Source of the DNA: Nymphaea colorata
Taxonomy: Eukaryota; Streptophyta; Magnoliopsida; Nymphaeales; Nymphaeaceae
NCBI RefSeq assembly: GCF_008831285.2
Contig: NC_045140.1
Coordinates: 661,528 to 725,527, forward strand
DNA length: 64,000 nt
Direction of reading: 5' to 3'
The notes under the pieces are model-generated. The model did not search any database. It was not told the origin of the DNA and was given only the letters and a program-made list of their open reading frames with translations. The translations under genes were made by a program, and so were the position numbers. Each line of letters opens with the position of its first letter. Positions within the stretch are counted from its first letter, which is position 1. Positions 51,001 to 57,000 of this stretch are shown here, piece after piece.

Positions 51001-54000
51001 CATAATTTGTAACATCCCCTTCAAACTTATGGTGAGCTCACCTAAAGTTTGCTAAGAAGAAAAGGTAACCTAGAAGCACCAAGCCCTTGGGTGCAAACTG
51101 GAAACTCTACTAGCTGAAATCAAATGTAATAAGGGAACTCGATGGTTTTCTTCAAGAATTCTTATCTCAGAAAATGGCAATCCATCTCAATGTGCTTGAT
51201 TTGTTGATAAAACATATAGTTGTTGGCAATATAAATGACACTTTTGTTGTCACAACACAATTTGGTTGGTCCTTTAATCTTGATTCCCATATCCTTGATT
51301 AAACTCCTTGACCAAATAATCTGCATAATAATTGAAGCTATAGCTCCATGTTCTGCTTCTGATGATGGCAAAGAGATCTTTGCTGCTTCTTGCATCTCTA
51401 TGAGACCACCGATGTGTGTAGGAATATGCAAGGATCAATAGGAGAGTGCCAATTATTTCAGATCACCTCTCCAATCAGCATCTATGTAAGCAATTAATTC
51501 TAAAAGGAAAGGAGGAAGACAAGAAAATATCCTTGTCAATATTATCTTTGGTTACCAAATAATTCTCAAAACTGCTCCCATATGAATTATAGTAGGAGCA
51601 TGCTGAAATTGACTAGCAACATGAACTACATATGCAATGTCAGGCTTAGTGGTCAAGTAGGAGAGATCACCAATAAATTGAGGATAATGTTCCTGATAAT
51701 TTATTCTCATCTTCATGTCAGGAACTTCAGGTGTGTCAACAACCTTGTTGTCAATTGTCCCAGACTTGCTGACAACATCAGCAACAAACTTGATTTGTGA
51801 AAATTAGTAGCCTCTCTGCAAACAACCAATTTAGATGTTAAGAAAATATGTTAGAAAACCTAAATCTGATATTTCAAACCCATTTTTTAGAGTTTGCCTT
51901 GTTTTTGTTTACCCATCTTGATAACTTACTATGATGATCATGTCATCAATATAGAGAAGTTTAACAATTCCTTAGTTGAATTCATCACATTGCTAAACCC
52001 ATCATACCAGGCCTTCAGAGCCTATTTCATCCCATAAGTACTTTTCTTCAAATGAAGAACCTTTTCCATCAGGAATATCGTATCTTTGAGGAGTCATAAA
52101 GAATTTCTCATTTAATTTCCATTTAAGAAGGCATTTTTTACATGCATCCTATGTTTTCCTGCATTAATTTGAACTGTTCTTTCTGATGCTATTACTGCTG
52201 TAATCTTTGCGCCAGGTTCATACTTCTTTTGAATTGGTCGAGCAGCTGGTTGAAGAGCAGAGTTTGGACATTCTTCACGATGATAAGTAATTTGGTTTTG
52301 AAACTCTTCATTAGTTTTGTTTGTATCTTTGTAATGATCCAAGGTTGTGAGTACTTGAAAATTGAAATAGTACCGAGAAATGCTTTGAGAAACAGAAACA
52401 GCAAACAAGAATTTTTCAGGTTCATGTTAAATGGGGAAAAGATATGTATATAGCATATATGAAATTAGTAACATATGTTTTTGAAAAAACATGTGATCAC
52501 ATTTCATGCATTGGCACAAGTATCACTTTTTTTTCTTTAAATATCACATTAACAAAAAAAATGTGAAAAAATTGTTATAGTTTGAAAATGTCACCAAAAT
52601 GAGAACATGAGGAAGCATTATGTTTTCATTACAACATTTCTTTTCCAGTTTTTTTTTTCAAAAAAGACTTTTAAAAATATATTTCATTTTTTGGGTTTTT
52701 TATAACTAATTTTAATTCTTATCAAGAAAGTTAGCTGAAAATCATATTTTCATAATCTTCTATGTTATTTTTATAGTTTTTAGTTTTTTAATTCCAAGGT
52801 TTCCTCAAGCTTTTCTGAAAAAAGTGAATTTTCCTATTAAAACCTGAGAAACCCTTGTCAGTGAAAACCCGAAAATGATATTTGTGCCAATGACTCCATA
52901 TACCTGTGGACGGTATTGTACATAATAGCATATTGTATGATGCATTACATTACACAATGCATCTGTATTGTATGAAGTGTAACTTATCACACCGCTATTC
53001 CAAATATTACACTATGGTATATGGTATCACATAAAGAAGATGTTGAAGGAAACTAGGAAAGTCTTTTTTGGACTTATATCAATTCTTAAGGCAGAATATT
53101 AAGTTGATCATGAAAGATATCTTTACACATTTAAAGCAAAAAATTGAAATTTAGGACTGATTTCATCCATTGTAATAAAAACTGTGTATTATTTGAAAAA
53201 AAACACGTATAATACCCGAGAAATAAGTCAGCTGTATAAAACGGCAATTAGACAAGTTTTTTTTTTAAAATGCCAGAAAATAAAAAAAAGTGAAAAATGC
53301 ATATTATACGCATTTTTTCGTATTTTTTATTATTATTTTTAATTTTTTATCATTTTCAGGATTTACTAAATGTTTTATTTTTTAAAAAAATTTGACGAGA
53401 TTTTTCTGAGATATACAACTTTGGCATATTATACCTGAGAAATTTCTTGCCGTATAATACCCGTACACGATAATGTGACAATGAATTTTCATCCAATAAA
53501 GTTAGTGCTTTCATGGCTTTTGCTTTTGTTGAAATAGATTGTAATGGGGAACCGGGTCCAATTCTGGACCCGGTCCCATGGGGCACGGGTACCGAGGCTG
53601 GCTCGGTACCCTAGGCGGCACTCTTTCTCTCCCTCCTATATAATCTTCACTTAAGTGTAATTGTTAAATTAAGTGAATAGATTTTCTCTCTCCTAGGGTT
53701 GCGGTGTGCACCTAGGTTGGAGCTTCCCGTGGTTTTTTCCTCTGACGTAGTAGAAAGGCGACTGATGTAAGCTTGTAGTTCCTTGATTTGATCCGAGGAA
53801 AGCCTCGACTTTTCACCACTAGAAGAACCACTCTGATTTGAGTCATGCACAAGAGAACCTCGCCGACTAGACGGAGGGCGACCACGAACAAGTCTCTTCT
53901 CAGGGTGTAGATCCCAACAAAAGTCAACAGAATGTCCTGACTTGTGACAATGTGTACATCGCCTAACAGGGCGCTGGCCAAACACAGAAGAACGGCTAAC

Positions 54001-57000
54001 AAAGGCCGAGGGACCATTCCCATGACTGGGGTCAATCTGCATCACTTGGCGTCTTTGTTCCTCTGATTCCACTCTAGCATAAACATCTTCTATTCCAGGA
54101 ATCTCATCACAATTGAGAATTTGACTCCGAATAGATTCAAACTCATCACGCAAGCCTCCAAGGAAAAGGAACGTCCGGTCCATCCATTCCTTTTCCCAGT
54201 ACCGGGCATGATCAGAACCACAGTCCCAGTTATCATTCACATGATAATCAAGTTCCTCCCACTTAGTTTTCAGGGCTGCATAGAAGGAGGCAACAGACAG
54301 GTCACCCTGTTTCAGAGAATAAATACTGCGTTTAATCTGGTACGTACGCAGAACCCTTTTCTTGCGACCATACATCCTCGCAAGCACAGTCCACATATCA
54401 AACGAAGTCGGCTTCCGCAGAATAAGAGGCTGAATATCAGCGGACACAGAGCTGATGATCCACACCTTAACCTGACTGTCTTCCAACACCCACGTCGCCC
54501 ATTGAGGATCAGTTTTGCTGGGCGCCGGTTTGTCGCCCGTGATATAGGAAAGACGACCACGGCTTGTTATCCCAATCTCGAGAGCAGCAGACCAGGAGAG
54601 ATAGTTGTCTTTAGTCAGACGAATGGGCGTGACCTGGACCGGCAAGATCTCGTTCTTGGGAGCGCTGCCTGCGTCAAAGGCCACATCACTTTTAGGTGCG
54701 ATCTCTTCCGCCATCACAAGTAGTCAAGTCAGACGCAACACCAGGCAGCAACAAGACAACACAGCGGCGGCTGAAACACCAGCACCACACGGAACCCTAG
54801 GTGTCGGCGACGGCGTGTTGGATCTCCCGACGGCGGCGGCGCAGAGGCGTGACAGCGCTGGATCATCCGACGGCGGAACAGGAGACACCCACGGCAGCGG
54901 AAGCTACAAACGGCAACCGGCGGCGGCGGCGCTGGATCGTCCGACGGCGGCGGCGCAGAAGATCCCAAAGGCAGCGGCGCGGCATACTCCAATGGCGCAG
55001 GGGCGACAGCGGAAACACGAGACGAAGCCGAACGATCTCACGAACCTGGCTCTGATACCATGTAGAAACATGCAACACACGAAGGAAGAAGAAAGGAACA
55101 AACAGTATACGTGGAAAAACCTCAGAAGAGGAAAAAACCATGGGAAGCTCCAACCTATGTGCACACCGCAACCCTAGGAGAGAGAAAATCTATTCACTTA
55201 ATTTAACAATTACACTTAAGTGAAGATTATATAGGAGGGAGAGAAAGAGTGCCGCCTAGGGTACCGAGCCAGCCTCGGTACCCGTACCCCATGGGACCGG
55301 GTCCAGAATTGGACCCGGTTCCCCATTACAATCTATTTCAACAGCTTTCATGTTTTTTCTTACAAGTGCCTACGCCTATCCCCCAAAATGAAAAAATTCA
55401 AGTTTTATAACCATTAAGTTGTTTCACAACTTCAAGGAGTAGAACATACATGTTAAAAATTTATTGCTTAAGTAGTTAATTTTGATTATTATAATGAAAA
55501 TGTGCATATTTATTATTTTCTTATATTCACACAATTTATGTTTTTAAATACAGAGTTTTTTAATATTTAATTTTTTCCCATTATTTTTGTATTTTTTCTG
55601 ACTTGGTAAATTTTCTAATTTTTAATGTTAAAAGTTTGTTATTTTGTTGGAGACTCATTAGTCATTAATATAGGTTATTTATACATTTTACAACATTGCC
55701 CAAAGAGAGGATCCTTTATGTCATGTAAATGATAACATGTTTTGACTACTTGGACATTTGTTAAAAAAATCTCTGAACTGAACTAAGAGCTTTAAAAATA
55801 GGTAAGATGGAGTGAATAAATAAACTGGTATGTTATCACATTATGGACATTCACGATCTGTAAAAGCAGAGGACTTTTACTGGAATAAATTAATCAGAAA
55901 TGTCAAAGGATCTTGACATTTTAGTTTATTCGCGAACAAAGAAAACAAAGTTTCCTGAAGAAATGCAAAGGGATCCAAGAAGCACGATCCTTGCTGTGAA
56001 GATGTTTCCAACTTTGTGACACGCTGATTACATTTTTCAGTAGCTTGGTTAAGTTGGTTCATTCACCAGCAATTCGGGGTCCTCTATCTATATGATAGTC
56101 AGTTTATTCCTGAACAGTAATACTCATGATATGTTGGTATTAACTGCTTTTTCACCCTTCTTTCAGTCACACATGCTCAATAAAAAGTGTGACTGGCTGC
56201 TGGCTGGCCCGCTGGGATGCTTTCAGTGCCACTTTGACTAGAGACCTTGAACTGGCTGGGTTGGCCAAAAACTCATTTGAGTAATATGTTGTCATAGCCT
56301 TGCCTTGGACAGCTGCTCTTAAGTGACCTGCCACTTGAAACACCCAGAACATCTCCTTGAAAATCTGGGCCTCCTAGGTGCCCATGGCCTGGACTTTCTT
56401 TTTTACAACTTAATTTTTGTTCTCTTTCTTTCGTTGTTCTTTTGCGAGACATATTTTTCTTTTCCTTCTTTGTGTTTCTGCAGTTTTTTTTTTTTTTTTT
56501 TTTTTTTACTTTTTGTCGTTCCATATGATTTCTTTTTTGAAAGTTGTGGGTCTGTTTGGGCCAGCGTGTGTGCATGCATGCTTATAGTTGTTAAGTAATA
56601 ACTACAATTGCAATTCGTATACTGTTTTACTTTGGATTTGGATATTTGTATGTTATTTTAGGTTGTTAGCCATCCTTTAAGGCTTTAACATATATATGTA
56701 TTATCTTTTTAAGAATTTTTCTTGTTTATTAGAATTATAATATAAGACAGTTTTGTGATAAGCAATGTTAACGTCAAACCTGTGATTATGTTAAAAATTT
56801 TTCTGGCCTCGTTTTCCTTTTAAGGTAGATTAGAAAGCTTAGGTTTTGGCATAGGGTTTTTGTTTTAAAAATTAGAATTAGAGATTTAGCAGTTGACATT
56901 CAGGAAATGATATGATTTGGAATGTTATAATGCTATATAACATTGAACAACATTGATATTTACTTGTAAATTTTTCCTTTTTTATGCTGTATAACTCGAA

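What the first reader, a model, noticed from the sequence alone, without database searches (positions are those of the whole stretch)
53522..55348. A retrotransposon insertion whose two ends are inverted copies of one LTR end, with a clean target-site duplication
Copia elements normally carry LTRs as direct repeats, with a U3 end on one side and a U5 end on the other. Here both outer ends are the U3 end (TGTTGAAATAG...CTATTTCAACA), flanked by gcttt on each side. The duplication shows that integrase inserted a linear molecule with two U3 termini, so the rearrangement came before integration. The inverted arm joins gag at a shared word (agaggaaaaaacc). This points to a template switch or self-priming event during reverse transcription that copied the cDNA back on itself. 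Autointegration products are circles and would not give this. It may represent a recognisable class of palindromic-end retro-insertions.
Basis: partly seen in the sequence, partly recalled or inferred. Interest (0 to 1): 0.85.

Follow-up and report, generated by a model that had tools for sequence, protein, structure and literature searches.

The report
Copia insertion with two U3 ends
A broken copy of a plant copia retrotransposon sits in the genome with the same LTR end at both sides, apparently because its DNA copy was joined head-to-head before or while it was inserted; it looks like a rare accident of a known process, seen once in this family.

Summary
53527-55343 is a 1,817-bp insertion whose two outer ends are the U3 end of one copia LTR (217-nt inverted arms, 3 mismatches), flanked by GCTTT. 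The window lies in a 408-Mb assembly with many relatives. (2) Both arms carry one private allele: 2 of 52 places within one mismatch of a 19-nt pattern, both in this insertion; 0 of 68 other aligned LTRs. So both arms have one source. (3) 22 of 24 readable LTR pairs have 5-bp duplications, as here. Diverged copies of the flanking repeat run through the site without the insertion. Most likely: a microhomology switch during plus-strand DNA synthesis, then ordinary integration. Not excluded: two cDNAs integrated by their U3 ends, or joined end to end; so the duplication does not by itself prove that the joint came first. No second case with a matching duplication was seen among 160 listed U3 ends: one event, not a class.

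The parts
53522..53526 (.). left copy of 5-bp target-site duplication GCTTT
   Evidence: 22 of 24 readable LTR pairs of the family have 5-bp duplications
53527..53743 (+). left arm: LTR positions 1-217 (U3 end outward), truncated before the LTR's 3' end
53738..53743 (+). 6-nt microhomology at the joint (TCCTCT on +, AGAGGA on -) common to gag and LTR
   Evidence: coordinates
53744..55048 (-). leader and truncated copia gag of the element
   Evidence: 53744-55060 is 96.96% identical to the C14 copy, L002; PF14223
55049..55060 (-). primer-binding site TGGTATCAGAGC directly after the LTR
55061..55343 (-). complete 5' LTR, 283 bp, U3 end outward at 55343
55344..55348 (.). right copy of target-site duplication GCTTT
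53507..53521 (.). GCTTTCATGGCTTTT, near-copy (13 of 15) of GCTTTCATGTTTTTT at 55344-55358; a 15-bp local near-repeat not seen in the 11 aligned related repeat copies

Best explanation
A single aberrant retrotransposition. In a particle, plus-strand DNA that had started at the polypurine tract and copied 217 nt of the LTR from the U3 end lost its template before the primer-binding site; its 3' end TCCTCT paired with AGAGGA in gag of a sense strand of the same element type (genomic RNA or displaced plus-strand DNA) and was extended through gag, leader, primer-binding site and LTR. The product is linear DNA whose two ends are both U3. Integrase, given a proper TG...CA terminus at each side, inserted it with the usual 5-bp duplication. 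Shown: two U3 ends, 5-bp duplication, 6-nt microhomology, one common source of both arms. Inferred: which strand switched, on what template, and that the joint preceded integration.
For: Structure and duplication. True gag sequence and 6-nt microhomology. Private G at LTR position 192 in both arms, A in 68 of 68 other aligned LTRs, and only these two arms among 52 places within one mismatch of a 19-nt pattern. The arms differ at 3 of 217; the left arm has the common base each time. 26 same-orientation neighbouring LTR pairs differ at 2 to 16 positions over 267-295, so the insertion is of ordinary age. Exact 5-bp duplication as in 22 of 24 readable pairs. Related repeat copies show the flanks contiguous. 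Template switching followed by integration with 5-bp duplications is proposed for copia elements of grasses (PMC1950507, whole text), and experiments point to several RNAs per particle and switching in Tnt1 (PMC2923131, passages).
Against: No intermediate was seen. A 6-nt microhomology fits end joining as well. R and U5 borders are not mapped, so it is unknown whether LTR position 217 is in R or U5. The switch needs an antisense extension on a sense strand late in reverse transcription, when genomic RNA should be largely degraded (general knowledge). The shared allele could also have been spread by gene conversion between the arms.
Confidence: 0.5

Rival explanations
1. Two-donor integration: integrase paired the U3 ends of two cDNAs of the same source (same particle), inserted both 5 bp apart, and the two free tails were trimmed and joined by host microhomology-mediated end joining at AGAGGA. 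The joint came after, or with, integration.
For: Explains U3-U3, 5-bp duplication, 6-nt microhomology and a common source with no odd reverse-transcription step. Several retroviral integrases carry out concerted integration with separate viral-end oligonucleotides in vitro (PMC11054761, passages).
Against: For HIV-1 integrase short U5 ends give half-site rather than concerted products (PMC3185514, passages), and none of this was shown for a copia integrase. In vivo the two tails would be a chromosome break to be trimmed by kilobases and rejoined. No plant case appeared in the listings.
Confidence: 0.2
2. Two cDNA pieces (one broken in the LTR at 217, one in gag) were joined head-to-head by microhomology-mediated end joining in the nucleus, then integrated as one molecule.
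For: 6-nt microhomology; both outer ends intact.
Against: Needs two breaks and one joint before integration; nothing in the sequence separates it from a template switch.
Confidence: 0.2
3. Two independent insertions in opposite orientation, fused later by a deletion between the left LTR and the right gag.
For: A pair of that kind exists: C7:2635640-2644212 has two 5' LTRs facing each other.
Against: The C7 pair has unmatched flanks (ACACT / CTGAT) and LTRs of different subfamilies (87% and 95% identical to the window LTR); here the flanks match and both arms share an allele not seen elsewhere.
Confidence: 0.03
4. Capture of retrotransposon cDNA at a chromosome break without integrase, the 15-bp near-repeat (GCTTTCATGGCTTTT / GCTTTCATGTTTTTT) being fill-in of the staggered break and the inner GCTTT a filler.
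For: The 15-bp near-repeat flanks the insertion and is not seen in the 11 aligned related repeat copies.
Against: Both element ends are exact and abut the 5-bp copies; the 15-bp copies differ at 2 of 15 while the arms differ at 1.4% (P about 0.019 if of the same age), so the repeat is probably older.
Confidence: 0.05
5. Assembly error that inverted the left arm.
For: Long inverted repeats can be mis-assembled; no reads were available.
Against: An inversion would not create a truncated arm joined at a microhomology and bounded by a matching 5-bp duplication; the arms differ at 3 positions.
Confidence: 0.02

Closest known systems
Template-switching complex insertions of Triticeae, rice and maize (Sabot and Schulman 2007, PMC1950507)
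   Same: One integration with a 5-bp duplication, outer LTRs of one origin, product explained by abnormal template switching
   Different: Those carry three LTRs in direct orientation and two complete cores; here the joint is inverted, between LTR and gag, and both ends are U3
Normal copies of this copia family in the same assembly (same-orientation LTRs mostly 4.2-5.4 kb apart; LTRs mostly 283-288 bp)
   Same: LTR, PBS, gag, 5-bp duplication
   Different: Direct LTRs, U3 and U5 outer ends, polypurine tract before the 3' LTR
DIRS-type retrotransposons (inverted LTRs)
   Same: Inverted terminal repeats
   Different: DIRS-1 has a tyrosine recombinase and is thought to integrate circular intermediates (PMC5633606, passages); here the inverted ends are one accident in a family with direct LTRs and 5-bp duplications

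Membership tests
Ty1/copia LTR retrotransposon (this family) | TG...CA LTR of about 283 bp adjoining a Met-tRNA-type PBS | tested here: met
   (that TGGTATCAGAGC is a Met-tRNA site is recalled)
Ty1/copia LTR retrotransposon (this family) | copia-type gag | tested here: met
   PF14223, E 2.9e-10
Ty1/copia LTR retrotransposon (this family) | 5-bp target-site duplication | tested here: met
   GCTTT; 22 of 24 readable family pairs likewise
Ty1/copia LTR retrotransposon (this family) | direct LTRs with U3 and U5 outer ends, rest of the internal region, PPT before the 3' LTR | tested here: not met
   U3 at both ends and gag cut off at the joint; it is a defective derivative
Template-switching complex element (PMC1950507) | flanking duplication and outer LTRs from one source | tested here: met
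Template-switching complex element (PMC1950507) | internal third LTR and two complete cores in direct orientation | tested here: not met
DIRS-type element | tyrosine recombinase | not tested
   the insertion ends in gag; the integrase region of relatives was not scanned

The most novel reading that the evidence does not exclude
Plus-strand strong-stop DNA can prime on gag and give integrase-competent linear DNA with two U3 ends, so same-end (U3-U3) integration with a normal 5-bp duplication happens in plants in nature, and such insertions form a small overlooked set in LTR-retrotransposon-rich genomes because annotation tools look for direct LTRs.
Probability: 0.3. Interest if true: 0.55.

Novelty: new variant of a known kind. 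Interest (0 to 1): 0.4.

Why it matters
It is a natural record of what looks like a plant copia integrase accepting two U3 ends, and of an inverted joint in a retrotransposition product. If such insertions prove recurrent they would show how often reverse transcription goes astray in particles, and they would be missed by programs that search only for direct LTRs. As a single case in one family it is a curiosity with a clear anatomy.

Tried and rejected
Thirteen-nt shared word: rejected, gag of 6 of 7 relatives shows 6 nt. A family of U3-U3 insertions: not supported. Of 160 U3 ends copied from the listings (searches list only the first 100 of 170 and of 106), 67 neighbouring pairs lie within 20 kb: 63 same-orientation, 3 facing, 1 pointing apart. 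The facing pairs are the window, C7 (no matching duplication, LTRs of different subfamilies) and C2 (both 3' LTRs, 13 kb apart). U5 ends (96 exact places): one pair pointing apart, 8 kb, C15; one of the two is a 3' LTR and the other is followed by gag, so it is not a U5-U5 insertion. Snap-back hairpin: judged unlikely by reasoning, not tested. A target duplication of 15-20 bp: judged unlikely. Allelic empty site: not available; only diverged repeat copies were compared. Twelve were given, 11 had the anchor, L099 had not, L100 aligned poorly, L098 has a different short insert at the place. In the LTR alignment a fourth column (216) differs between the arms only through a gap set by the aligner and was not counted. 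Literature: 10 searches ran; five of them (15, 22, 29, 35 and, for all terms, none beyond one paper in 20 and 55) gave nothing or one paper, and I saw no U3-U3 plant insertion in any listing. The library holds open papers only.

Full report
What is there. The insertion occupies 53527-55343. Read on the minus strand it starts with a complete 283-bp LTR (55343 down to 55061), then the primer-binding site TGGTATCAGAGC, a leader and a truncated gag, and ends with an inverted copy of LTR positions 217 to 1. Both outer ends are therefore the U3 tip, and both abut GCTTT. A frame over the gag part, which runs on into the left arm, matches the copia gag family PF14223.

Relatives. The window is G000:C3:661528-725527 of a 408-Mb assembly in 783 contigs. 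A search with the insertion gave 84 matches from 40 scored of 1,633 candidates. The U3 tip occurs 78 times with up to 2 mismatches, and 170 times with a second pattern and up to 3 (first 100 listed). In 52 of 67 neighbouring pairs among 160 listed U3 ends the two ends have the same orientation and lie 4.2-5.4 kb apart, as expected of normal copies.

The joint. In 6 of 7 relatives gag continues CTACTACGTCAGAGGACACATC where the window turns into LTR; the seventh, L003, lacks three bases of it. The LTR's antisense strand reads CTCAGAAGAGGAAAAAACC. Common to both is AGAGGA, at 53738-53743. Six or more matching nt at a random joint has a probability of about 0.0013 with equal base frequencies.

One source for both arms. 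I aligned the arms with 68 of the 76 other U3-carrying LTRs (eight were not fetched). The arms differ at three positions; at two of them the right arm is alone, at the third six of 68 share its base, and the left arm has the common base at all three. At position 192 (counted from 0) both arms have G and all 68 others A. A 19-nt pattern around it, with one mismatch allowed, occurs at 52 places in the assembly; only the two arms carry the G, the other 50 have A. The nearest LTR outside the insertion, at C14, differs from the left arm at 2 of 217. Both arms thus come from one source element or one reverse-transcription product; later gene conversion between the arms is not excluded.

The target. 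Of 26 neighbouring same-orientation LTR pairs, 24 had both flanks readable, and 22 of these 24 have an exact 5-bp duplication. The right flank belongs to an old dispersed repeat. Of 12 related copies given, 11 could be placed, at 72-95% identity over short stretches; they run through the site without the insertion. Likeness on the left side rests on about 40 nt, because a younger high-copy repeat (53169-53483) lies next to it. L100 aligned poorly and L098 has another short insert. Apart from the 5-bp duplication the window has 15 more bases there than these relatives, a near-repeat GCTTTCATGGCTTTT / GCTTTCATGTTTTTT. With 2 differences in 15 it is probably older than the insertion (P about 0.019). 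This is comparison with diverged copies, not with an empty allele.

A natural control. At C7:2635640-2644212 two 5' LTRs also face each other, 8.5 kb apart. There the outer flanks do not match (ACACT and CTGAT), the LTRs are of different subfamilies (87% and 95% identical to the window LTR), and the two elements meet tail to tail in the internal region, presumably pol (no domain search was made there). That is what two insertions fused later should look like, and the window differs on both counts.

Mechanism. A linear DNA with two U3 ends arises if unfinished plus-strand strong-stop DNA, ending at LTR position 217, primes at AGAGGA in gag on a sense strand and is extended to the other end. Snap-back of one strand on itself should leave a hairpin with a single LTR end. 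The rivals that remain are a joint of two cDNA pieces before integration, and concerted integration of two U3 ends from two cDNAs followed by joining of their tails. Several retroviral integrases do concerted integration with separate viral-end oligonucleotides in vitro (PMC11054761, passages); HIV-1 integrase with short U5 ends gives half-site products instead (PMC3185514, passages). The sequence alone cannot choose between these three. I give the template switch the largest share because several RNAs per particle and switching are proposed or supported for plant copia elements (PMC1950507, whole text; PMC2923131, passages).

Place among known things. The nearest described products are template-switch complexes with duplications (PMC1950507), which are direct, with three LTRs. 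Inverted LTRs as a regular feature are known from DIRS-1, which has another integration enzyme (PMC5633606, passages). In the listings of ten literature searches I saw no U3-U3 plant insertion; the library holds open papers only. Verdict: real, a single event in what was listed, a new variant of a known kind.

Noticed in passing
G000:C7:2635640-2644212 (L081, L084, L082): Two truncated copia copies, 5' LTRs facing, meeting tail to tail in the internal region, with a piece of about 350 bp of the right copy repeated at the joint and no matching duplication; the left copy has a 5' part of another subfamily but a 1.3-kb stretch 97% like the right one.
   Followed up: partly
window 53169-53483: High-copy repeat of about 315 bp ending 43 bp before the insertion; 40 of 845 candidates were scored, the window itself among them.
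   Followed up: no
window 4755-5201, 7341-7774, 9447-9893: Three direct copies of a stretch of about 440 bp, 88-94% alike.
   Followed up: no
window 40049-42418: 789-aa pentatricopeptide-repeat protein with E and E+ motifs.
   Followed up: no
G000:C15:2600348 and 2608419: Two U5 ends pointing apart, 8 kb apart; one lies in a 3' LTR, the other is followed by gag, so probably two neighbouring copies.
   Followed up: partly
G000:C7:9769801-9771523: Short copy with both LTRs, PBS and PPT but only 1.7 kb between LTR starts and a 5-bp duplication: an internally deleted copy.
   Followed up: no
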